From contig NZ_JAPJDC010000001.1 in NCBI RefSeq assembly GCF_026241855.1, forward strand, positions 1,302,001 to 1,366,000: a stretch of DNA of 64,000 bases, read 5' to 3'. The notes beneath the pieces are model-generated. The model did not search any database. It saw only the letters and a program-made list of their open reading frames with translations, and was not told where the DNA came from. Shown piece by piece: positions 88-21,721 of this stretch (the first letter of the stretch is position 1; each line of letters starts with the position of its first letter). This DNA is from Curtobacterium flaccumfaciens pv. betae (GTDB lineage Bacteria; Actinomycetota; Actinomycetes; Actinomycetales; Microbacteriaceae). Position numbers and translations under genes: made by a program.

Positions 88-1506
88 GTGGACATCCCCG
101 CCACGCGAGGCATCCCCACCTCGGTCGTCGAGAAGACGGCCATCCGCAAGATCGCGATCCGCATCGTGCCGTTCGTGGCACTGATGTTCTTCATCAACTT
201 CCTCGACCGCACCGCGATCTCCTTCGCCGCCCCCAACGGCATGGAGGCCGACCTCGGCCTGACCGCCGCCCAGTTCGGCTTCGCGTCCGGTGTGTTCTTC
301 ATCGGTTACCTCGTGCTCGAGGTGCCGTCCAACCTGGCGCTGCACAAGTTCGGCGCCCGGATCTGGCTGGCCCGCATCATGATCACGTGGGGCATCGTGT
401 CCCTGCTCTTCACGTGGGTGCAGAACTACCCGCAGCTCGTCGGCCTGCGCTTCCTGCTCGGCATCGCCGAGGCCGGCTTCTTCCCCGGCGCGATCCTGTT
501 CCTGTCGACCTGGGTCCCGGCCCGTCACCGCGGCAAGATGCTCGCGCTGTTCTACCTGGCGCAGCCGCTCACGAGCGTCATCGGTTCCCCGCTCGCCGGC
601 TGGCTGATGACCCACGAGGGGATCCTCGGCGGCCTGGCCGGATGGCGCTTCATGTTCCTCTGCGTCTCGATCCCGGCGATCATCGTCGGCGTCCTGTGCC
701 TCTTCGTCCTCAAGGACAAGCCGTCGCAGGCGAAGTGGCTCGACGAGGACGAGAAGATCTGGCTGGAGACGACGCTCGCCGCCGAGAGTGCCGCGAAGGG
801 CGGCGGAGACGGTCACGGCAAGGGCGGCCTGCGTGCGGCCTTCGGCTCCGGCCGCGTCTGGATGCTCGCCGCGGTGTACTTCGGCTTCATCTACGGCCTC
901 TACGCGCTCAGCTTCTTCCTGCCGACGATCATCGACGGCTTCCAGGAGCAGTTCGGCACCACGTTCGACCTGTTCCAGAAGGGCCTCATCACGGCCATCC
1001 CGTACGTGCCCGCCGCGGTGGTCCTGTACTTCTGGTCGCGTGACGCCTTCCGTCGTGGCGTCCGGGTCTGGCACATCGCCGTCCCGGCCCTGGTCGGTGG
1101 CCTGAGCATCCCGGTCGCGCTCTACATGAACAGCCCGGCCGCCACCGTCGCGGTCATCGCGATCACCGCGTGTGCGATCTTCGCGGCCCTGCCGAACTTC
1201 TGGACGGTCCCGACGCAGTTCCTGACCGGTGCCGCCGCAGCCGCGGGGGTCGCCCTCATCAACACCGTCGGCAACCTCGGTGGGTTCGCCGCCCCGTACA
1301 TCACGGGTGCGGTCAGCGAGTGGACCGGCGGGTACCAGGTGCCGATGTTCATCGTCGGGTTCTTCATGGTGCTGTCGAGCGTGCTCATGTTCGTGCTCGG
1401 CCGGAACACGAAGCGCAACGAAGCGGCCGCCGCGGCGTCCGCAGCCGACACCGCGGTCGCCGCCACGGACGGACCGACCGCCATCGCGAAGGAGGCCGGC
1501 GCATGA
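88..1506 (+). CDS. MFS transporter, anion:cation symporter (ACS) type, probable apionate/sugar-acid permease
   Basis: The 472-residue protein has about 12 membrane segments and the typical ACS-family N-terminal half (NFLDRTAISFA near residue 37, then a GARIWLARIMITWGIVS stretch near residue 90), as in tartrate, phthalate and galactonate permeases. A cytoplasmic loop follows segment 6. The GTG start is preceded by AGGAG at 5 nt. It is the first gene of an operon whose next start codon overlaps its stop (ATGA at 1503), so it most likely imports the substrate degraded by the downstream enzymes, inferred to be D-apionate or a related branched sugar acid. The family assignment is firm; the substrate is inferred from context only. 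Confidence 0.85.
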   Translation: MDIPATRGIPTSVVEKTAIRKIAIRIVPFVALMFFINFLDRTAISFAAPNGMEADLGLTAAQFGFASGVFFIGYLVLEVPSNLALHKFGARIWLARIMITWGIVSLLFTWVQNYPQLVGLRFLLGIAEAGFFPGAILFLSTWVPARHRGKMLALFYLAQPLTSVIGSPLAGWLMTHEGILGGLAGWRFMFLCVSIPAIIVGVLCLFVLKDKPSQAKWLDEDEKIWLETTLAAESAAKGGGDGHGKGGLRAAFGSGRVWMLAAVYFGFIYGLYALSFFLPTIIDGFQEQFGTTFDLFQKGLITAIPYVPAAVVLYFWSRDAFRRGVRVWHIAVPALVGGLSIPVALYMNSPAATVAVIAITACAIFAALPNFWTVPTQFLTGAAAAAGVALINTVGNLGGFAAPYITGAVSEWTGGYQVPMFIVGFFMVLSSVLMFVLGRNTKRNEAAAAASAADTAVAATDGPTAIAKEAGA

Positions 1507-3269
1507 CCCGCCTGTTCAACGACCCGGCGGACTTCGCCGACGAGATGGTGGACGGCTTCGTCGCCGCCAACCGCGCCCGGGTCCGCAGGGTGCACGGCGG
1601 CGTCGCCCGCTCCACCACCAGCCCCGAGGGCACCGTCGCGCTGGTCGTCGGCGGTGGCTCCGGCCACTACCCGGCCTTCGGTGGCCTCGTCGGGCACGGC
1701 CTGGCGGCCGGTGCCGCGATGGGCAACCTGTTCGCCAGCCCGAGTGCCCAGCAGGTCACCGCGGTCGCGAGGGCGTCCGAGCACGGCGGCGGCGTGCTGC
1801 TGAGCTACGGCAACTACGCGGGTGACGTCCTCAACTTCGACGCGGCGGCACGGGCACTCGAGGCACAGGGCATCGACGTCCGCACGGTCCGCGTGACCGA
1901 CGACGTCGCGTCCGCGCCCGCCGACCAGGCACACAAGCGCCGCGGCATCGCGGGGGACCTCTGCGTGTTCAAGGTGGCCGGCGCGGCCGCTGAGCGCGGC
2001 GACGACCTCGACGCGGTCACCGCGATCGCGACCAGGGCCAACGACCGCACCCGCAGCTTCGGGGTCGCGTTCTCGGGGTGCTCCCTGCCCGGCGCCGACG
2101 AGCCGCTCTTCACCGTCCCCGAGGGGCGCATGGCCATCGGCATGGGCATCCACGGCGAACGCGGCATCGCCGAGGCCGACGTCCCCACCGCGGACGGCCT
2201 GGCCGACCTGCTCGTTGACAAGCTCCTCACCGAGCGACCCGACGACACCGGCACCGGCACCACAACACACGGCACGGCACCAGACACCGCAACAGCACCC
2301 GCCGGCCCCCGCGTCGTCCCGATCCTCAACGGCCTCGGCTCGGTGAAGTACGAGGAACTCTTCGTCGTCTTCGGCGCCGTCCAGCGGAAGCTCACCGACG
2401 CCGGCATCGTCGTCGTCGAGCCCGAGGTCGGCGAACTCGTCACGAGCTTCGACATGGCGGGCGTCTCGCTCACCCTGTTCTGGCTCGACGACGAACTCGA
2501 GCAGCTCTGGGCAGCCCCCGCCGACGCCCCCGCCTACCGCAAGGGCGGCGCCGTCCCGCAGCAGCCCGTGCCGGTCGAGGTGCTCGAAGCCGGCGTGGTC
2601 GTGCCCGTGACGCCCGGCACCGAGGAGTCCCAGGCCTCGGCTGCCCGCATCGCGAGCGCGATCACCGCGATCCGCGCCACCATCGACGACCACGCCGACG
2701 AGCTCGGCCGCATCGACGCCGTCGCCGGGGACGGCGACCACGGCATCGGCATGCAGCGCGGCTCCACCGCCGCCGACCGTGCGGCACAGGACGCCGCCGC
2801 CCGTGGCGCTGGCGCCGGTTCGGTCCTCGCGATCGCCGGCGACGCGTGGTCCGACAAGGCCGGTGGGACGTCCGGTGCGATCTGGGGTGCTGCCCTGGAG
2901 GCCCTGGGTCGCGTCCTCGGGGACGAGTCCCGTCCGACACCCGCCACCGTCCAGAGCGCGGTGCACGCCGCCGCCGAAGCCGTCCTGGCCTTCGGAGCCG
3001 TCCCCGGCGACAAGACGATGGTCGACGCGCTCGTGCCGTTCGACCAGGTCTTCACCGCCCGGGTCGACGCCGGCGACGAACTCGTCGACGCCTGGTCGGC
3101 CGCCTCGGCCGCAGCACAGACCGCGGCGGACGCCACGGCCGACCTGTTGCCCCGGATGGGCCGCGCCCGCACCCACGGCGAGGACGCCGTCGGCACCCCG
3201 GACGCCGGCGCGATCTCGTTCGCGCTCATCACCGCCGCTGTCCTGACGACCATCGCCGTCCCCGCCTGA
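1503..3269 (+). CDS. lerK: Dihydroxyacetone kinase-family protein, probable L-erythrulose 1-kinase
   Basis: The 588-residue protein fuses a DhaK domain (about 1-330) to a DhaL domain (about 380-585), the single-chain ATP-dependent arrangement. His217 in GMGIHGERG matches the histidine that binds the keto group of the substrate, and GDGDHG (about 409-414) supplies the Mg-ATP aspartates of DhaL. Dihydroxyacetone kinases of this type in mycobacteria phosphorylate erythrulose (LerK, DerK). Because neighbouring genes encode LerI-like and DerI-like isomerases and an OiaC-like decarboxylase that yields L-erythrulose, L-erythrulose kinase is the best call. The start ATG overlaps the permease stop (ATGA). 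Glycerone kinase remains possible but explains the neighbours less well. Confidence 0.75.
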
Positions 3270-3294
3270 CCCCCACCACGAAAGGCACACCCGC

Positions 3295-3780
3295 ATGAGT
3301 GAGCAGCAGTTCCGCATCGTCGTCGGTTCGGACGACGCCGGCTTCGACTACAAGGAGGTCATCAAGGCCGACCTGGCGAAGGACCCCCGCGTGGCCTCCG
3401 TCGTCGACGTGGGCGTGGACGCCGACGGCCACACCGCCTACCCGCACGTCGCCGTCGACGCCGCCCGTCTGGTGGCGAACGGCGAGGCCGACCGCGCGAT
3501 CCTGATCTGCGGCACCGGCCTCGGCGTCGCGATCGCGGCGAACAAGGTCTTCGGCATCCGCGCCGTGACCGCGCACGACTCGTTCTCGGTGGAGCGCTCG
3601 ATCCTGTCGAACGACGCCCAGGTGCTCTGCATGGGCCAGCGCGTCGTCGGGGTCGAGGTCGCGCGCCGGATGGCGAAGGAGTGGCTCGGCTACACCTTCG
3701 ACCGGACGAGCGCGAGCGCCGAGAAGGTCAACGCGATCTGTGCCTACGACGGCTCCACCCCGGTCGGGACCGACGCCTGA
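3295..3780 (+). CDS. derI: RpiB/LacAB-family isomerase, probable D-erythrulose 4-phosphate isomerase
   Basis: The 161-residue protein is a full-length RpiB-fold sugar-phosphate isomerase. It has the phosphate-binding start ([12 protein letters not shown]), the catalytic-cysteine loop [14 protein letters not shown] near residue 67, and the conserved [10 protein letters not shown] segment near residue 92. In tetrose catabolism (EryI/DerI) this family converts D-erythrulose 4-phosphate to D-erythrose 4-phosphate, which enters the pentose phosphate pathway. It lies 25 nt after lerK, and its stop shares one base with the lerI start (TGATG). A ribose-5-phosphate isomerase role cannot be excluded from sequence alone, but the operon argues for a dedicated tetrose enzyme. 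Confidence 0.78.
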
Positions 3781-4601
3781 TGCCCGCGACCACGGCGGCC
3801 GCCCCGGTGACGATCGGGGTGTCGCTCAAGATGTACTTCAGCCATGCCCGGACGCTCGAGTGGGCGGCCGCCGTGGCCGACATCGCCCGGAGCCACCCGG
3901 CGGTGCGGTCCGGCGCGGTCGAGCTCTTCGTGGTGCCGACGTTCCCGTCGCTCGTCCCCGTCCGGGCGATCCTGACCGGGTCAGGCGCTCCGGTGCTGCT
4001 CGGTGCCCAGGACCTCGCCTGGGCCGACGAGGGTGCCTTCACCGGCGAGGTCTCCGGCGCCGAACTCCGTGAGATCGGGGTCGACCTCGTCGAGATCGCA
4101 CACGCCGAGCGCCGCTCCCTGTTCCACGAGACGGACGACGAGATCGCCGGCAAGGTGCACGCGGCGTACCGCAACCACCTGCGGCCCCTGGTCTGCATCG
4201 GCGAGACCGAGCGCGCTGCCGACGGCGACCCCGCGGCCGCGATCGCCGAGGTCACCGCGCAGCTCGACCGGTTCCTGGCGACCGCGACCGCCGACGGCAT
4301 CGCCGGACCGCTCATCGCCGCGTACGAGCCGGTGTGGGCGATCGGCGCCCCGCAGCCGGCGCCCGACGAGCACATCGTCGCGGTCCTGGCCGGCATCGAG
4401 CAGCACCTGGCGACCCGGCCGGAGCTCGCCGGCTCCGTCGCGATCTACGGCGGCAGTGCCGGTCCGGGCCTGCTGACCCGCGGTGCCGGACGCATCGGCG
4501 GCCTGTTCCTCGGCCGCTTCGCCCACGACCCCGAGGCGATCCGCACGATCCTCGACGAAGCCGAGGCGCTGGCCGCGACGCAGGACGGAGCACCGGCATG
4601 A
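3780..4601 (+). CDS. lerI: Triosephosphate isomerase-like protein, probable L-erythrulose 1-phosphate isomerase
   Basis: The 273-residue TIM-barrel protein keeps the three catalytic residues of triosephosphate isomerase: Lys17 (VSLKMYF), His108 (EIAHAERR) and Glu183 (AYEPVWAIG). The usual GHSERR is AHAERR here, and the glycine-rich phosphate loop near the end (YGGSAGPG) is shifted from the housekeeping pattern, so this is a paralogue rather than the glycolytic enzyme. LerI/EryH enzymes of this type convert L-erythrulose 1-phosphate to D-erythrulose 4-phosphate, the step between lerK and derI. The ATG at 3780 shares a base with the derI stop, which favours this start. Function is inferred from family and context. 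Confidence 0.77.
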   Translation: MPATTAAAPVTIGVSLKMYFSHARTLEWAAAVADIARSHPAVRSGAVELFVVPTFPSLVPVRAILTGSGAPVLLGAQDLAWADEGAFTGEVSGAELREIGVDLVEIAHAERRSLFHETDDEIAGKVHAAYRNHLRPLVCIGETERAADGDPAAAIAEVTAQLDRFLATATADGIAGPLIAAYEPVWAIGAPQPAPDEHIVAVLAGIEQHLATRPELAGSVAIYGGSAGPGLLTRGAGRIGGLFLGRFAHDPEAIRTILDEAEALAATQDGAPA

Positions 4602-5443
4602 CCTCCCTGCTCGGCCTCTCCACCTACGCCTACTTCTGGCGCATGTCCGACCGCGTCCCGTCGCCGATGTCCCTCGACGACGCCCTGCGCGACGGCGCGT
4701 CACACGACGGCGTCGACCTGTTCCAGATCTGCGACCACCTGCCGCTCGACACCGCGACCGACGAGCGCCTGGCCTCGATCCGGTCCCTGGCCACCGACCT
4801 CGGTCTCACGCTCGAGGTCGGTACCCGAGGCACCCGGCCGAAGCACCTCGCCCGGTACCTGCACGTCGCGCAGCAGCTCGGCGCAACGCTCGTGCGGAGC
4901 ATGTGGACGAGCGGCGACGACCAGCCCGACGCGGCCGAGACCGAACGACGCCTGCGGCAGACGCTCCCCGCCTACGAGCGCGCGGGCGTGACCCTCGCGC
5001 TGGAGACCTACGAGGTCGTCGCCACCGCCGACCTCGTCGCGGTCGTCCAGGCGATCGGCTCCGACAACTTCGGCATCTGCCTCGACCCGGCGAACACCGT
5101 CGCCCGGCTCGAACACCCGGGGGACGTCGTGGCGATGACCGCCCCGCACGTCGTCAACTGGCACGTCAAGGACTCCGCCTTCACCCGCTCACCGGGCTGG
5201 GTCGGTTTCCAGTACACCGGCGTCCCGATCGGCAGCGGGGTCCTCGACCACGACGCCGTCCGCGCCGCGCTCGAGCCCGACACCCGGGGGATCAACCGCG
5301 TCATCGAGTTCTGGCTGCCGTGGCAGGACGAGCACGCGGGCGCCGAACCGCTGCCGGGGGAGACCCCCGCACAGACCACCACCCGCATCGAAGCGGCGTG
5401 GACCGAACACACCATCGAGTACATCAGGAGCAAGGAATCATGA
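4598..5443 (+). CDS. oiaC: Xylose isomerase-like TIM-barrel protein, probable 3-oxo-isoapionate decarboxylase
   Basis: The 281-residue protein belongs to the sugar-phosphate isomerase/epimerase (AP endonuclease 2) TIM-barrel family, whose members bind a divalent metal through Glu/Asp/His residues; LALETYE near residue 133, CLDPANT near 162 and NWHVKDS near 187 are the likely metal-site strands. OiaC enzymes of this family decarboxylate 3-oxo-isoapionate to L-erythrulose. That step would link the downstream apnO product to the upstream lerK substrate, which is why this name is preferred over hydroxypyruvate isomerase. The start overlaps the lerI stop (ATGA at 4598) and its own stop overlaps the apnO start. 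The fold is certain; the reaction is inferred. Confidence 0.7.
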   Translation: MTSLLGLSTYAYFWRMSDRVPSPMSLDDALRDGASHDGVDLFQICDHLPLDTATDERLASIRSLATDLGLTLEVGTRGTRPKHLARYLHVAQQLGATLVRSMWTSGDDQPDAAETERRLRQTLPAYERAGVTLALETYEVVATADLVAVVQAIGSDNFGICLDPANTVARLEHPGDVVAMTAPHVVNWHVKDSAFTRSPGWVGFQYTGVPIGSGVLDHDAVRAALEPDTRGINRVIEFWLPWQDEHAGAEPLPGETPAQTTTRIEAAWTEHTIEYIRSKES

Positions 5444-6357
5444 CCGACACCGTCACCACCCCCCACACCGTCGCTGCCGGATCCGGCACGGCCGACGTCA
5501 CCGTCGCCGTGATCGGTGCCGGCGGCAAGATGGGCACCCGCGTCTCGAACAACTTCGCGAAGAGTGAGTACACCACCCTCTACAGCGAGGCCTCGCCCGC
5601 CGGCCAGGAGCGCATCCAGGCCCTCGGCCGCGAGATCACCGACAGCCTCGACGCCGCGAAGGCCGCCGACGTCGTCATCCTCGCCGTCCCGGACGTCCTG
5701 CTCGGCACCATCTCCGAGCAGCTCGTCCCCGTCATGAAGTCGGGCGCCAGCATCCTGACGCTCGACCCGGCCGCCGCCTACGCGGGTCTCCTCGCCAAGC
5801 GCGAGGACATCCACTACGCCGTGGCGCACCCGTGCCACCCGTCGGTGTTCCTCGAGCGCACCACCAAGGCCGAGTGGGACGACACCTTCGGTGGCATCGC
5901 CGCCCCGCAGGAGGTCATCGCGGCCTTCGACGCCTCGGAGTCGCTCGGCGACGAGGGCGACCGTGCCAAGGCCGTCGCCGAGGCCGTCATCACCACGATG
6001 TACGCCCCGGTCATCCAGGTGCACTGGGTCACGGTGAAGCAGCTGGCCGTGCTCGAGCCGACCCTGGTCGAGACGATCGCCTGCATGATCGGCGACTTCC
6101 TCAACGACGCCCTCGAAGAAACGGTCACCGGTGTCGGCGTGCCCCGTGAGGCCGCCCGCGCCATGCTCTACGGCCACACGTGGATCGCGCTGACCAACGG
6201 CCTGCGCGGCTCGAACCCGTTCTCCGACGCCTGCCACATCGCGATGGGCTACGGCCGCGAGAAGCTCATCAAGGAGGACTGGAAGCAGGTCTTCGACGAC
6301 AGCGAGCTCGACTCGGTCATCGCGAAGATGCTCAAGATCGACGCCGTCCGGCGCTGA
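5440..6357 (+). CDS. apnO: NAD-binding oxidoreductase with phosphogluconate dehydrogenase-type C-terminus, probable D-apionate oxidoisomerase
   Basis: The 305-residue protein has an N-terminal Rossmann motif (VAVIGAGGKMGTRV, about 24-37), a conserved VAHPCHPSVF segment near 127 and a helical C-terminal domain of the phosphogluconate dehydrogenase type. ApnO enzymes of this family oxidise D-apionate with migration of the carboxylate, giving 3-oxo-isoapionate. It is the last gene of the operon; the ATG at 5440 overlaps the oiaC stop and is preceded by AGGAGCAAGGA. A strong hairpin 50 nt beyond the stop (6407-6441) could end the transcript. Assignment rests on family recall plus the fit of all five neighbouring enzymes to one route; no search was run. 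Confidence 0.7.
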   Translation: MTDTVTTPHTVAAGSGTADVTVAVIGAGGKMGTRVSNNFAKSEYTTLYSEASPAGQERIQALGREITDSLDAAKAADVVILAVPDVLLGTISEQLVPVMKSGASILTLDPAAAYAGLLAKREDIHYAVAHPCHPSVFLERTTKAEWDDTFGGIAAPQEVIAAFDASESLGDEGDRAKAVAEAVITTMYAPVIQVHWVTVKQLAVLEPTLVETIACMIGDFLNDALEETVTGVGVPREAARAMLYGHTWIALTNGLRGSNPFSDACHIAMGYGREKLIKEDWKQVFDDSELDSVIAKMLKIDAVRR

Positions 6358-6389
6358 GCCGGACCGCCGCCGACCACCGCGCCGACCCG

Positions 6390-7985
6390 TCAGCGCGCCC
6401 GGACCGGAACGCCCCGCCGACCCCCTTCCGGCGGGGCGTTCCCCGTGCCGTCGGCGGCCACGAACCCCCGCGGCCCCCACGCCTCGGCCAGCGTGATCGA
6501 GGCCACGCCCGGCACGGTCAGCGCCCGCACCGCGTCGGCGAACCACCGCGCGGCGGCCGACGTGTGCTGCGCCGGGTCCGTCGCGTCCGGAACGGTCTCC
6601 GGGCCGTAGCCGTGCTCCACGGTCGCGTCCGCCACGACCCGGGTCGGCGCCGTCGCCACCGCGTTCCACCGTGGCCGCAGCGTCACCGGTCCGACGTGCA
6701 GCGCCCTGCCGGCGGCCAGCCTGGAGGCGCTGCTCACCACCCAGCGCTGCATCCGGATCGACTCGGTCACCTGTTCGGGCGACCGGTCGTGCATCTGCGG
6801 CGTCACGCTGCAGGTCAGGGGGCCGTCCCAACCCGAGAACACCGCGATCGAGCGGTTCAGCTCGGTGAAGTGGGCCCGGGTACCGGCGACGACCTCCAGC
6901 GCGCCGACCGCTGCCACCGCTTCGCGCAGTGCCCGCTGCAGCGCCGGCGTCGTCACGTGCGACACCGGGTCGAACGCCCCGACGCGCGCCACCGGCCCGC
7001 CCTCGAGCACCGCGTCGATCGCCGCGCGCAGCAGCACCGGGTCGTCGGTGACGAACCGGACGTCCAGGGGAGCGCCACCCGCGTCCCGGCGGGCCGACGC
7101 GAGCACCGCCTCGACGTTCGGGGCGCCGAGGGTCGGCTCGACCAGGATCGGGAACCCGCGGAGCAGGTCGGCGTCGTCCGGGCGCGCAGCGACCGGTGCC
7201 GAACCCGCGAGCAGCTGGAGCGTCGGCGGCGGCGTGACCACGGCACCGGGAGCGGGCCCGTCGAGCGCCGCCAGGTCCGGGGCGGGGGAGGCCGTGCCTG
7301 GCGACCGGGTGCCCGGACCACCTGCTGGACCGCCCGCCGTCGCACGCAGGGTGAGCCCCTGCCGGACCGTCGTCCCCGGCGTGCTCGCGACCGGGAACGG
7401 CTCGGCGAGGGGCGTCGAGTACGTCTTGAACGAGGCGTCGGTCCAGTTCCGCTGGTCCTCGGTCTCGAACACGTCGCCGGTCAGGTCGAGCGACAGCGCG
7501 ACCGGACCCGCAGCCCAGTCGAGCCCGGCGACGTCGACGGCCGGCTGGTGCGGCGCGATCCAGAACGGGAACGCCGTCGCGGTGACGCCACCGGACGGGT
7601 GCCGCACCGTCAGCGGCTGCCCGGCCAGGGTCGGCGGGTGCAGGACGACGAGCCCGATGCGGTTGCGGCGGAAGGCCCGTGTGACCGTCCCGACCGCGGC
7701 GACCCGAAGGGTGTCGTCGTCGACCGTGACCTCGAGGACGGTGCGGACGACCTCGACGCCGTCGTACCGTGCGCTGGTCTCGATGCGGATGCGCCCATCC
7801 TCACCGTCCGCCGTGCGTGTCAGCACGGTGTCGTCGGCGGTGCGCCAGTCGTGGTCGCGGACGACGAACCGGACGGCGCGCAGGACGAGCGTGCCCCGGA
7901 ACGTGACGTCGGCGAGTTCGGCTCCGCGCAGGGCCAGACGCCAGGGCCCGACGGACACGATCTCGTCGTTCGACGTCGCAGTCAT
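6390..7985 (-). CDS. apnL: Probable D-apionolactonase (ApnL family)
   Basis: The 531-residue protein lacks common hydrolase motifs but carries the signature I associate with ApnL: RFVVRDHDW near residue 38, RNRIGLVVLHP near 106 and FETEDQRNWTDASFKTYST near 173. ApnL opens D-apionolactone to D-apionate, the substrate of apnO. It is convergent with the catabolic operon, 32 nt after apnO, and divergent from the SDR gene at 8066. The ATG at 7985 is the first reasonable start. Its last 18 codons overlap a 12-bp hairpin (6407-6441), so the C-terminal tail (GGRRGVPVRAR) may be partly shaped by a terminator. At 531 residues it is somewhat shorter than the roughly 600 I recall for the family. Confidence 0.68.
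   Translation of the reverse strand: MTATSNDEIVSVGPWRLALRGAELADVTFRGTLVLRAVRFVVRDHDWRTADDTVLTRTADGEDGRIRIETSARYDGVEVVRTVLEVTVDDDTLRVAAVGTVTRAFRRNRIGLVVLHPPTLAGQPLTVRHPSGGVTATAFPFWIAPHQPAVDVAGLDWAAGPVALSLDLTGDVFETEDQRNWTDASFKTYSTPLAEPFPVASTPGTTVRQGLTLRATAGGPAGGPGTRSPGTASPAPDLAALDGPAPGAVVTPPPTLQLLAGSAPVAARPDDADLLRGFPILVEPTLGAPNVEAVLASARRDAGGAPLDVRFVTDDPVLLRAAIDAVLEGGPVARVGAFDPVSHVTTPALQRALREAVAAVGALEVVAGTRAHFTELNRSIAVFSGWDGPLTCSVTPQMHDRSPEQVTESIRMQRWVVSSASRLAAGRALHVGPVTLRPRWNAVATAPTRVVADATVEHGYGPETVPDATDPAQHTSAAARWFADAVRALTVPGVASITLAEAWGPRGFVAADGTGNAPPEGGRRGVPVRAR
6407..6441. terminator. Hairpin at the convergent apnO/apnL ends
   Basis: GAACGCCCCGCC (6407-6418) is a perfect 12-bp match to GGCGGGGCGTTC (6430-6441) with an 11-nt loop. 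It stands 50 nt beyond the apnO stop but inside the 3' coding end of apnL. There is no T tract, so it would be an atypical intrinsic terminator or an mRNA 3'-end stabiliser. Confidence 0.55.
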
Positions 7986-8005
7986 GGTGCATGCCTAGCA
8001 CCGGT

Positions 8006-8015
8006 CAACCGGTTG
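8006..8015. promoter_or_regulatory. LacI-type palindrome between apnL and the SDR gene
   Basis: CAACCGGTTG is a perfect 10-bp palindrome with a central CG, the core usually seen in LacI/GalR-family operators. It sits in the 80-bp divergent intergenic region, 21 bp from the apnL start and 51 bp from the SDR start, so one bound repressor could silence both genes. No LacI gene lies in this window. Confidence 0.45.
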
Positions 8016-8065
8016 GGCAATGATGGGTGTGACGGAGCAGCGCTGCTCCGAGGACGGAGTCCCAC

Positions 8066-8827
8066 ATGACCGCACGACTCGACGGCCGGACCGCACTCGT
8101 CACGGGAGCGGGGTCCGGCATCGGCCGCGCGATCGCCGACCGCTTCGTAGCCGAGGGGGCCACCGTCGTCTACGCCGACCGCGACGCCGATGCGGCCGCC
8201 GGTGCCGCCGCCGCAGCCGGCCCGACCGCGACCGGCCTCACGATGGACATCGCCGACGAGACGAGCGTGGCCGCGGGGTTCGCCGGACTGGCCGACCGTG
8301 GTGCGAGCCCCGACGTGGTGGTCGCGAACGCCGGTGTGCAGCTGTTCGGTCACGACGCGAAGGTCGCCGACCTGTCGCTGGAGACCTGGGACCGCACGGT
8401 CGCGGTCAACCTCACCGGCACGTTCCTGACGATCAAGCACGCCGTCCGGGTGATGCTCGCGAGCGGCACCGGCGGGTCGGTCATCGCCACGGGGTCGCCG
8501 ACCGGCCTGAACGGCGAGGGCGCCGACTTCGCGGCGTACTCCTCGACCAAGGGCGGCATCCACGCACTCGTCCGGGCGGCCGCGATGGCCTACGCACGGG
8601 ACGGCATCCGGGTGAACACGGTCGTGCCGGGCTACACCGAGACCGGCCTCGTGTCGGCGATCTCCGGTGACCCCGAGGCCCGAGCCGCGATCGTCGCCCG
8701 CACACCCCTCGGCCGCCCCGGCACCCCCGACGACGTCACCGGCATCATGGTCTACCTGGCCAGCGCGGAGTCGTCCTACGCCACCGGCGCGGAGTTCCGC
8801 GTCGACGGCGGTATGACGAGCCTCTGA
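8066..8827 (+). CDS. SDR-family NAD(P)-dependent oxidoreductase
   Basis: The 253-residue classical short-chain dehydrogenase has the cofactor motif TGAGSGIGRA near residue 12, NAG near 89, a serine at about 143 and the catalytic YSSTK near 152-156, followed by the PGYTETGL segment and a typical C-terminus (EFRVDGGMTSL). It is divergent from apnL across a region with a shared palindrome, so it probably belongs to the same pathway. It could oxidise D-apiose to apionolactone or act on a related polyol, but the known D-apiose dehydrogenase (ApsD) is of the unrelated Gfo/Idh family, so the role is a guess. GGAG stands just upstream of the ATG. Confidence 0.85.
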   Translation: MTARLDGRTALVTGAGSGIGRAIADRFVAEGATVVYADRDADAAAGAAAAAGPTATGLTMDIADETSVAAGFAGLADRGASPDVVVANAGVQLFGHDAKVADLSLETWDRTVAVNLTGTFLTIKHAVRVMLASGTGGSVIATGSPTGLNGEGADFAAYSSTKGGIHALVRAAAMAYARDGIRVNTVVPGYTETGLVSAISGDPEARAAIVARTPLGRPGTPDDVTGIMVYLASAESSYATGAEFRVDGGMTSL

Positions 8828-16369: not shown

Positions 16370-21446
<5,077 letters not shown>

Positions 21447-21474
21447 CACTGATTTCCGTGCACTTGTTGCACGG

Positions 21475-21487
21475 GCTCGCGTCCACT
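21475..21487 (+). other. 3' arm of the 23S processing stem
   Basis: GCTCGCGTCCACT is the perfect 13-base complement of 18229-18241, so the two flanks of 23S would form a long duplex for RNase III-type cleavage. Confidence 0.65.
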
Positions 21488-21601
21488 TTGTGGTTCCCGA
21501 CAGACGATCGGGAATCGAAACTGAATACACCGCTCTGTCTTCTTCACGGAAGATAGCAGCTGGGACAGCTTTGAGACCAAATGCATGATCTGGTCGAAAG
21601 T

Positions 21602-21721
21602 GTTCCGGTGGTCATAGCGAGAGGGAAACGCCCGGTCACATTCCGAACCCGGAAGCTAAGCCTCTCAGCGCCGATGGTACTGCAAGGGGGACCTTGTGGG
21701 AGAGTAGGACGCCGCCGGACT
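21602..21721 (+). rRNA. 5S ribosomal RNA
   Basis: About 120 nt with helix I formed by TCCGGTGG and CCGCCGGA, the CATTCCGAACCCGGAAG loop and GGGAGAGTAGGACGCCGCC near the 3' end, all diagnostic of 5S rRNA. It is the last gene of the rrn operon, 155 nt after 23S. Exact ends may differ by one or two bases. Confidence 0.95.

What the first reader, a model, noticed from the sequence alone, without database searches (positions are those of the whole stretch)
88..8827. Complete D-apionate catabolic locus in a presumed plant-associated actinobacterium
Seen: six genes with 1-4 bp overlaps or 25-nt spacing encode an ACS-type permease, a DhaK-DhaL kinase, an RpiB isomerase, a TIM-like isomerase, an AP-endonuclease-2-fold protein and a Rossmann/PGDH-type dehydrogenase; next to them is an ApnL-like lactonase. 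Known: ApnL, ApnO and OiaC convert D-apionolactone via D-apionate and 3-oxo-isoapionate to L-erythrulose, and LerK, LerI and DerI carry that to D-erythrose 4-phosphate. Inferred: all steps from lactone to a central metabolite are present in one 8-kb block, so this cell probably lives on apiose from plant pectin or glycosides.
Basis: partly seen in the sequence, partly recalled or inferred. Interest (0 to 1): 0.7.

Follow-up and report, generated by a model that had tools for sequence, protein, structure and literature searches.

The report
Plant-sugar apiose degradation gene cluster
A plant-associated bacterium of the genus Curtobacterium carries genes of a known pathway for the plant-derived sugar acid D-apionate, plus a lactonase and a short-chain dehydrogenase that travel together and probably let it start from apiose itself, apparently under one shared DNA control sequence.

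Summary
The six genes at 88-6357 match, at 43-69% identity, an Erwinia/Pantoea plasmid gene set of the same order (RpiB divergent). The PGDH_C protein's 38-40% relatives lie in clusters with NCBIfam-named oiaK, oiaX and apnL, so it is ApnO by family and context. The lactonase is a divergent ApnL homologue (167.8 bits, cut-off 750).

I propose it is the actinobacterial D-apiose dehydrogenase, in place of the unrelated Gfo/Idh/MocA enzyme ApsD. In 66 congeners the 23 genomes with an SDR hit all have ApnL, and the 25 with ApnL all have ApnO. In 63 ApnL loci of other genera, 51 have the SDR beside ApnL on the same strand; none has an ApsD hit above 29%.

A palindrome, consensus TGGTCAACCGGTTGACCA, marks the set. 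Its 12-mer GTCAACCGGTTG occurs three times in the genome, all in this locus: by the divergent FCD-GntR regulator, the core operon and between ApnL and SDR. Of 110 exact cores in 99 loci, 107 lie upstream of pathway or regulator genes.

No activity, growth or binding was tested. The pathway is known; the SDR entry step and operator are my additions.

The parts
88..1506 (+). MFS permease, anion:cation-symporter type (apionate/apionolactone uptake, inferred)
   Evidence: PF07690 1.8e-48; best NCBIfam TIGR00893 D-galactonate transporter, 276.7 bits, below cut-off 395; 66-69% identical to the permease of the Erwinia/Pantoea sets
1503..3269 (+). DhaK-DhaL kinase, LerK-like (L-erythrulose kinase, inferred)
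   Evidence: PF02733, PF02734; NF011049 above cut-off, 726.4 vs 492; 59-60% identical in Erwinia/Pantoea; HGE and DGDHG motifs present (motif meaning recalled)
3295..3780 (+). RpiB-type isomerase, DerI-like (D-erythrulose-4-P isomerase, inferred)
   Evidence: PF02502; TIGR02133 202.9 bits (cut-off 168.2) and NF051858 DerI 141 bits (cut-off 240); one of three PF02502 matches in the genome
3780..4601 (+). TIM-like isomerase, LerI-like (L-erythrulose-phosphate isomerase, inferred)
   Evidence: PF00121 7.8e-48; one of three TIM matches in the genome; LKMY, HAERR and YEPVWAIG motifs present (meaning recalled)
4598..5443 (+). Xylose-isomerase-like TIM barrel, OiaC-like (3-oxo-isoapionate decarboxylase, inferred)
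   Evidence: PF01261; E136, D163, H189, E237 invariant in 12 aligned homologues from Actinomycetota and Erwiniaceae; 46-48% identical to Erwinia/Pantoea
5440..6357 (+). PGDH_C Rossmann protein, ApnO (D-apionate oxidoisomerase)
   Evidence: PF16896 3.6e-54; 61-62% identical to Erwiniaceae homologues, 38-40% to three homologues in oiaK/oiaX/apnL clusters
6390..7985 (-). Divergent ApnL homologue (D-apionolactone hydrolase, inferred)
   Evidence: NF049900 ApnL 3.6e-49, 167.8 bits vs cut-off 750; 60 columns invariant with three proteobacterial ApnL proteins in an 8-row alignment
8002..8019 (.). Operator-like palindrome CGGTCAACCGGTTGGGCA between the divergent ApnL and SDR genes
   Evidence: GTCAACCGGTTG occurs at three places in the genome, all in this locus; a core with at most 1 mismatch lies upstream of SDR/ApnL in 22 of 23 genus loci holding both
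8066..8827 (+). SDR dehydrogenase, proposed D-apiose 1-dehydrogenase
   Evidence: PF13561/PF00106; orthologue beside ApnL in 51 of 63 loci of other genera; YxxxK and VANAGVQLFG conserved in 15 aligned homologues

Best explanation
The locus is a D-apiose/D-apionate catabolic regulon. Core operon (known pathway, xylose-isomerase-family decarboxylase branch): the permease brings in apionate or its lactone; ApnO converts D-apionate to 3-oxo-isoapionate; OiaC decarboxylates it to L-erythrulose; LerK, LerI and DerI carry that to D-erythrose 4-phosphate. Entry module (my addition): the SDR at 8066-8827 oxidises D-apiose (as its furanose) to D-apionolactone, probably with NAD+, and the divergent ApnL homologue opens the lactone. 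The SDR would be the actinobacterial, non-orthologous counterpart of the Gfo/Idh/MocA enzyme ApsD. A divergent FCD-type GntR regulator would control its own gene, the core operon and the ApnL/SDR promoter through TGGTCAACCGGTTGACCA-like sites. Shown here: gene content, homology, co-occurrence, gene order and placement of the palindrome. Inferred: every substrate, the cofactor, and that this regulator binds these sites.
For: Same gene set (RpiB divergent) on Erwinia and Pantoea plasmids. ApnO relatives in clusters with oiaK/oiaX, ApnL and a Gfo/Idh/MocA gene. Congeners: ApnO 36 of 66, ApnL 25 of 66 (all with ApnO), SDR 23 of 66 (all with ApnL); the two ApnL genomes without an SDR hit are a 65%-complete assembly whose SDR is split over two frames, and a contig that ends inside ApnL (Fisher p 6e-10 and 9e-16, not corrected for relatedness). 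Other genera: SDR within 550 bp of ApnL on the same strand in 51 of 63 loci; only 2 of 63 hold any hit to the two presumed ApsD, at 25% and 29%. Of the remaining 12 loci, L128 has the SDR right after ApnO, and 5 genomes have an orthologue elsewhere, one of them beside a second ApnL. Of four fetched stretches with a distant SDR, two (L180, L183) have it next to a PF13204/DUF5060 gene; L183 also has the palindrome at the head of that operon. Palindrome: three exact 12-mers in the genome, all in the locus; 110 exact cores in 99 loci, 107 within 450 bp upstream of a panel gene, none inside one; nine control palindromes of the same composition 0-5 each. PF13204 genes near ApnL in at least 13 of 63 other-genus loci against about 0.3 expected.
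Against: No activity, growth or binding data. The ApnL homologue scores far below the NCBIfam cut-off; two of three proteobacterial comparators pass it (818.2, 770.4), one does not (672.3), and four other actinobacterial homologues score 176-207. Pairwise BLAST is significant only for residues 6-209 (second half E 2.6). OiaC has only generic family matches; the RpiB protein passes a ribose-5-phosphate isomerase cut-off, not the DerI one. Six of the 63 loci (L147, L150, L151, L152, L153, L158) are in genomes without an SDR orthologue at E 1e-40; some are MAGs or drafts. The window's genome has no PF13204 gene, and an anion-type permease suits apionate better than apiose. 11 of the 51 pairs neither have a core with at most 1 mismatch upstream nor sit in the ApnO operon; such a core lies upstream of ApnL/SDR in 27 of 63 loci against about 7% of random double 400-bp stretches. 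Looser matches are not specific: 14-mer with up to 2 mismatches 24 places in the genome (reversed control 10), 18-mer with up to 3 mismatches 8 places (control 4), two in the locus. L180 has no palindrome within 4 mismatches. PF13204 is no proof of apiosidase activity, and 9 of the 13 loci are Microbacterium.
Confidence: 0.76

Rival explanations
1. The core and ApnL are apionate genes as described, but the SDR does something else in the same regulon, for example acting on apiitol, a glycoside or a keto intermediate, while apiose is oxidised by a Gfo/Idh/MocA enzyme elsewhere in the genome.
For: SDR substrate cannot be read from sequence; its family models are generic and below cut-off and the closest solved structures are assorted SDRs; the genome holds 13 matches to a presumed ApsD at E 1e-5; six ApnL genomes lack the SDR.
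Against: Those 13 matches are 21-30% identical (best 4.7e-17) while the two presumed ApsD share 62%; only 2 of 63 other-genus loci hold any such hit, at most 29%; SDR and ApnL move together, as the Gfo/Idh/MocA and lactonase genes are adjacent in the three proteobacterial clusters.
Confidence: 0.18
2. The lactonase homologue has diverged to another lactone or ester, so the locus handles apionate only and its ApnL/SDR pair handles a different sugar that shares the regulator.
For: Score 167.8 against a cut-off of 750; significant pairwise similarity only in the N-terminal 40%.
Against: 60 columns invariant with three proteobacterial ApnL, 18 of them beyond residue 300; same palindrome, and in many genera the same operon as ApnO; apiosidase-like genes nearby in 13 loci.
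Confidence: 0.1
3. The six-gene operon serves another four-carbon route (erythritol/threitol/erythrulose) and the PGDH_C and TIM-barrel proteins have non-apionate functions.
For: Kinase and both isomerases are those of tetritol pathways (recalled); RpiB passes a generic family cut-off.
Against: No tetritol dehydrogenase in the operon; the PGDH_C relatives lie with oiaK/oiaX/apnL; the ApnL homologue was not found without ApnO in 66 congeners.
Confidence: 0.05

Closest known systems
D-apionate degradation via D-apionate oxidoisomerase and a xylose-isomerase-family decarboxylase (ApnO, OiaC, then LerK/LerI/DerI); names recalled from Carter et al. 2018 and Huang et al. 2015, neither read (Carter not held)
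   Same: Same protein families in one operon; ApnO context confirmed by neighbouring named oiaK/oiaX.
   Different: Here an SDR rather than a Gfo/Idh/MocA protein partners the lactonase; FCD-GntR regulator with a conserved palindrome; MFS permease.
Apiose clusters of Shinella, Paraburkholderia and Paracoccus (L009-L011), and of Rhodobacteraceae strain LCG007, which grows on D-apiose (PMC11747546, passages seen)
   Same: D-apionate oxidoisomerase and lactonase genes; lactonase directly after a dehydrogenase gene in L009-L011.
   Different: L009-L011 have a Gfo/Idh/MocA dehydrogenase, a kinase and a RuBisCO-like decarboxylase and ribose-type ABC transporters; LCG007 is described with the kinase and the 4-phosphate decarboxylase; no exact core palindrome in L007-L011.
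Erwinia sp. E602 and Pantoea sp. At-9b plasmid gene sets (L007, L008)
   Same: Permease-kinase-TIM-OiaC-ApnO order; 43-69% identity gene by gene.
   Different: RpiB divergent, annotated 'sugar-binding transcriptional regulator' instead of FCD-GntR, no ApnL or SDR among the annotated genes within 10 kb (that gene table is incomplete).
Sugar oxidation by SDR aldose 1-dehydrogenase plus lactonase (L-rhamnose, D-xylose types; recalled)
   Same: Works like it: an SDR oxidises the cyclic sugar, a lactonase opens the lactone.
   Different: Membership of this SDR in the named NCBIfam SDR families shown was tested and not met (all 25 listed below cut-off).

Membership tests
D-apionate catabolic operon (ApnO/OiaC type) | ApnO-family PGDH_C oxidoreductase, relatives linked to apionate genes | tested here: met
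D-apionate catabolic operon (ApnO/OiaC type) | Xylose-isomerase-like protein adjacent to ApnO with intact metal-site residues | tested here: met
   OiaC in 34 of 35 fetched genus ApnO loci and in 43 of 43 other-genus loci with ApnO, and in Erwiniaceae; E/D/H/E invariant in 12 sequences; activity not tested
D-apionate catabolic operon (ApnO/OiaC type) | L-erythrulose kinase and two isomerases | tested here: inconclusive
   Right folds and gene order; no specific model above cut-off, DerI model 141 of 240 bits
D-apionate catabolic operon (ApnO/OiaC type) | Conversion of D-apionate to L-erythrulose | not testable with these tools
   Needs enzyme assay
ApnL D-apionate lactonase (NF049900) | Score above curated cut-off of 750 bits | tested here: not met
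   167.8 bits; comparators Shinella 818.2, Paraburkholderia 770.4, Paracoccus 672.3
ApnL D-apionate lactonase (NF049900) | Homology along the whole protein | tested here: inconclusive
   60 invariant columns in both halves and two hmmscan stretches, but pairwise BLAST significant only for residues 6-209
ApsD D-apiose dehydrogenase (Gfo/Idh/MocA) | Orthologue in the locus or genome | tested here: not met
   13 genome matches at 21-30%; two presumed ApsD share 62%
SDR-type D-apiose dehydrogenase (proposed) | Linkage to ApnL and the regulon | tested here: met
SDR-type D-apiose dehydrogenase (proposed) | NAD+-dependent oxidation of D-apiose | not testable with these tools
   Needs enzyme assay
FCD-GntR (FadR-type) regulon | GntR plus FCD regulator next to conserved palindromes | tested here: met
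   PF00392 and PF07729; at least one exact core between regulator and permease in 31 of 31 genus loci holding both
FCD-GntR (FadR-type) regulon | Regulator binds the palindrome | not testable with these tools
   Needs gel shift or footprint

The most novel reading that the evidence does not exclude
A family of SDR enzymes across Actinomycetota is the D-apiose 1-dehydrogenase, an independent replacement of ApsD, and an FCD-GntR regulator with the operator TGGTCAACCGGTTGACCA controls an apiose regulon in those bacteria: SDR, ApnL, ApnO, OiaC, the erythrulose genes and, in some genera, apiosidase-like glycosidases and sugar ABC transporters.
Probability: 0.68. Interest if true: 0.55.

Novelty: new variant of a known kind. 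Interest (0 to 1): 0.5.

Why it matters
Apiose occurs in the plant wall pectin rhamnogalacturonan II and in many plant glycosides (passages of PMC11747546). If right, the route by which many leaf and soil actinobacteria use it becomes testable: one new dehydrogenase family, one divergent lactonase branch, and one palindrome that can be scanned for further members such as DUF5060/DUF5605 glycosidases, a nucleoside-hydrolase-like protein and sugar transporters. In the held library the phrase 'apiose dehydrogenase' was not found, but PMC11747546 names that enzyme with a misspelling, so the phrase search is weak; no paper held both apiose and Curtobacterium, or GntR, operator and the palindrome. 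A wider term search returned 427 papers, the 20 listed being about other things. Most subscription journals are not held.

Tried and rejected
Looked for ApsD in the genome and in the loci: matches of 21-30% rejected as orthologues. Looked for an apiosidase in the window's genome (PF13204): none. Considered DUF6807 and the methyltransferase upstream of the regulator as parts: DUF6807 was hit in 6 of 36 genus stretches, some of which end too early to tell; left out. Considered the tetritol route: no matching dehydrogenase in the operon. Looked for a solved relative of ApnL: none up to E 10. Looked for the SDR on plasmids: none at E 1e-50. Structure prediction of ApnL was asked for five times and never ran, so no fold evidence is claimed. 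A 14-base search in the window alone with up to 3 mismatches was not significant (6 matches, 4.19 expected).

Limits of the counts. In one search only 40 first-look SDR candidates per genome were scored (of 42-99), and at most 22, so an absence there is less sure than a presence. The 80 loci are the best 80 of 441 relatives; 17 are Curtobacterium, 63 are not, and two of the 63 (L114, L124) lie on one contig. The palindrome counts come from loci chosen for holding ApnO or ApnL, so related promoters are not independent. PF13204: the tblastn hit 14 of the 80 loci; I then submitted 41 of the 63 other-genus loci, including all 14 hit loci; 40 were searched (L154 not held), 42 matches in 27 genomes, and by hand 13 of them fall in the fetched stretches. 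L154 has DUF5060/DUF5605 but not PF13204. The expected 0.3 uses 42 matches per 172 Mb over the 1.23 Mb of 63 loci. In alignments A1, A2 and A4 most rows were cut to the BLAST match, so I do not claim that other actinobacterial ApnL lack a C-terminal end: mechanical gene calls give 571-680 aa for several, while the window's protein is 531 aa. The ApsD and OiaT labels rest on position and neighbouring NCBIfam names, not on a specific model.

Full report
What is there. The window (G000:C1:1302001-1366000) begins just inside a divergent promoter. Six overlapping or closely spaced genes run from 88 to 6357, followed by a minus-strand gene (6390-7985) and a plus-strand gene (8066-8827). Pfam gives MFS, Dak1+Dak2, LacAB_rpiB, TIM, AP_endonuc_2, PGDH_C and SDR folds; the minus-strand protein has no Pfam match but matches NCBIfam's D-apionate lactonase at 3.6e-49, 167.8 bits against a cut-off of 750. 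Just left of the window lies a divergent GntR-FCD regulator. The genus is Curtobacterium: a genome called same-species (G007) has, at this locus, a contig of the same length as one titled Curtobacterium flaccumfaciens LMG 3645.

Is it an apionate pathway? The PGDH_C protein is 61-62% identical to proteins on an Erwinia and a Pantoea plasmid and about 37-41% to the other records listed, mostly rhizobia and relatives. In Erwinia and Pantoea it ends a row of permease, DhaKL kinase, TIM, TIM barrel and PGDH_C, with rpiB divergent (identities 43-69%). In Shinella, Paraburkholderia and Paracoccus the PGDH_C gene lies in a cluster with genes annotated as 3-oxo-isoapionate kinase OiaK or decarboxylase OiaX, a Gfo/Idh/MocA dehydrogenase and, directly after that, a lactonase annotated hypothetical. 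NCBIfam confirms, above cut-off, ApnL in Shinella and Paraburkholderia, OiaX in Shinella and OiaK in Paraburkholderia; the Paracoccus lactonase reaches 672.3 of 750 bits. A Rhodobacteraceae strain, LCG007, with lactonase, dehydrogenase, oxidoisomerase, kinase and decarboxylase genes grows on D-apiose (PMC11747546, passages seen). So the PGDH_C protein is ApnO by family and context. The operon here has neither OiaK nor OiaX but the TIM barrel; its E136, D163, H189, E237 are invariant in 12 homologues, the metal-site pattern of the xylose-isomerase-like fold (recalled). The kinase and isomerases have intact signature motifs, and the genome has two further matches each to TIM and RpiB families, so these look pathway-specific. 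No specific family model confirms OiaC, LerI or DerI.

The lactonase. In an alignment with four other Curtobacterium-genus rows and three proteobacterial ApnL, 60 columns are invariant, 42 in the first 200 residues and 18 beyond residue 300, including a GDVFE-EDQR-W-D-S-KTY block. Against that, pairwise BLAST with the Shinella protein is significant only for residues 6-209, and five actinobacterial homologues scanned, the window's included, score 168-207 bits. It is a divergent branch of the ApnL family and not a formal member by the NCBIfam cut-off. The window's protein (531 aa) is shorter than the Shinella one (630 aa).

The SDR and co-occurrence. In 66 genomes of the genus ApnO is found in 36, ApnL in 25 and the SDR in 23. 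Every genome with ApnL has ApnO and every genome with an SDR hit has ApnL; the two ApnL genomes without an SDR hit are a 65%-complete assembly whose SDR is split over two frames, and a contig that ends inside ApnL. Not all first-look candidates were scored. Fisher tests give 6e-10 for ApnL with ApnO and 9e-16 for SDR with ApnL, not corrected for relatedness. In two congeners the pair sits elsewhere relative to the operon but stays together and is co-directional, SDR first (L086, L075).

Beyond the genus. A scan of GTDB genomes with an ApnL alignment found 441 relatives; the best 80 were kept, 63 of them not Curtobacterium. In 51 of the 63 an SDR of 58-73% identity lies within 550 bp of ApnL on the same strand. 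In L128 it follows ApnO while ApnL is apart. Of the 12 loci without an adjacent SDR, 6 genomes have an orthologue at 60-77% identity (L128's own among them, and for L114 the one beside a second ApnL, L124), and 6 have none at E 1e-40. Two of the 63 loci hold a hit to the presumed ApsD proteins, at 25% and 29%, and the window's genome has 13 matches of 21-30%, while the two presumed ApsD share 62%. SDR plus lactonase, with apionate genes, is best read as sugar 1-dehydrogenase plus lactonase. This is inference: SDR family models and solved relatives are unspecific.

Independent pointers to apiose. Genes with the Pfam Apiosidase domain lie in at least 13 of the 63 other-genus loci, against about 0.3 expected from 42 matches in 172 Mb of 40 genomes. 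The 40 were chosen with all the hit loci among them, 9 of the 13 are Microbacterium, and the domain is not proof of activity. Four stretches around distant SDR genes were fetched: in L180 and L183 the SDR is directly next to an apiosidase-like gene, in L182 it follows a nucleoside-hydrolase-like gene behind a palindrome, and in L181 I found no such partner. In L183 the order is palindrome, sugar ABC transporter, apiosidase-like gene, SDR. In L107 a palindrome lies in front of a DUF2291/RbsA-type transporter operon, like the DUF2291 transporters next to apiose genes in L009-L011.

The palindrome. GTCAACCGGTTG occurs three times in the 3.78-Mb genome: before the regulator, before the core operon, and between ApnL and the SDR at window 8004. 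With mismatches it is less specific: the 14-mer with up to 2 mismatches has 24 places (reversed control 10), the 18-mer with up to 3 has 8 (control 4), two of them here. In 36 genus loci and 63 other-genus loci there are 110 exact CAACCGGTTG palindromes; 107 lie within 450 bp upstream of a gene of the query panel (pathway or regulator) and none inside one; nine control palindromes of equal composition occur 0-5 times each. One of the other three is upstream of the apiosidase-like gene of L136, one upstream of the L107 transporter, and one (L128) falls in or near an unrelated gene. Within the genus a core with at most 1 mismatch lies upstream of ApnL/SDR in 22 of 23 loci holding both, and an exact core lies between regulator and permease in 31 of 31. 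In other genera 40 of 51 SDR-ApnL pairs either carry such a core or sit within 250 bp behind ApnO; 11 show neither, though one of these (L136) has the palindrome before the preceding apiosidase-like gene. Counting the core alone, 27 of 63 loci have it upstream of ApnL/SDR against about 7% of random double 400-bp stretches. The five proteobacterial loci have no exact core. That the FCD-GntR protein binds it is inferred from position and conservation.

How it most likely works. Apiose is oxidised by the SDR to the lactone; ApnL opens it; apionate, made so or taken up by the anion-type permease, is rearranged by ApnO to 3-oxo-isoapionate; OiaC removes CO2; LerK phosphorylates L-erythrulose; LerI and DerI lead to D-erythrose 4-phosphate. 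The 11 congeners with ApnO but no ApnL hit would use apionate but not apiose by this route: a testable prediction.

Known versus new. The core pathway is known (names recalled from Carter et al. 2018, not held); passages of PMC13001218 describe the transketolase-type apiose pathway in E. coli, and passages of PMC11747546 an oxidative one in an alphaproteobacterium. The SDR entry enzyme, its distribution and the palindrome are my additions; the library searches listed nothing on either, but most subscription journals are not held and only two of the listed papers were looked into.

Noticed in passing
window 16370-21720: A complete 16S-23S-5S rRNA operon on the + strand; ARAGORN found no tRNA gene in the whole window.
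   Followed up: partly
window -2594 to -1785 (L006:11406-12215): A DUF6807 gene upstream of the regulator; hit near the locus in 6 of 36 genus stretches. Its link to the pathway is unclear.
   Followed up: partly
L182:9580-10566: In Frondihabitans sp. PhB188 a nucleoside-hydrolase-like gene (PF01156) precedes the SDR behind a palindrome: possibly a hydrolase of an apiofuranoside.
   Followed up: partly
L151:6131-7396 and L163:11713-12978: MGH1/GH63/trehalase-like glycosidase genes in two ApnL loci that lack an adjacent SDR.
   Followed up: no
L136:18556-21062: An OiaK-like (33%) and a RuBisCO-like (45%) gene lie in the same Arthrobacter locus as the OiaC-type pathway, suggesting two apionate branches in one genome.
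   Followed up: no
L082-L085 near the SDR; window -4896 to -3083: Another SDR gene and an AraC-type gene that lie 3-5 kb left of the window sit directly beside the pathway SDR in four congeners.
   Followed up: no
L138:8834-9745: An SMP-30/gluconolactonase gene lies divergently beside ApnL in Frondihabitans sp. PhB188, a possible second lactonase.
   Followed up: no
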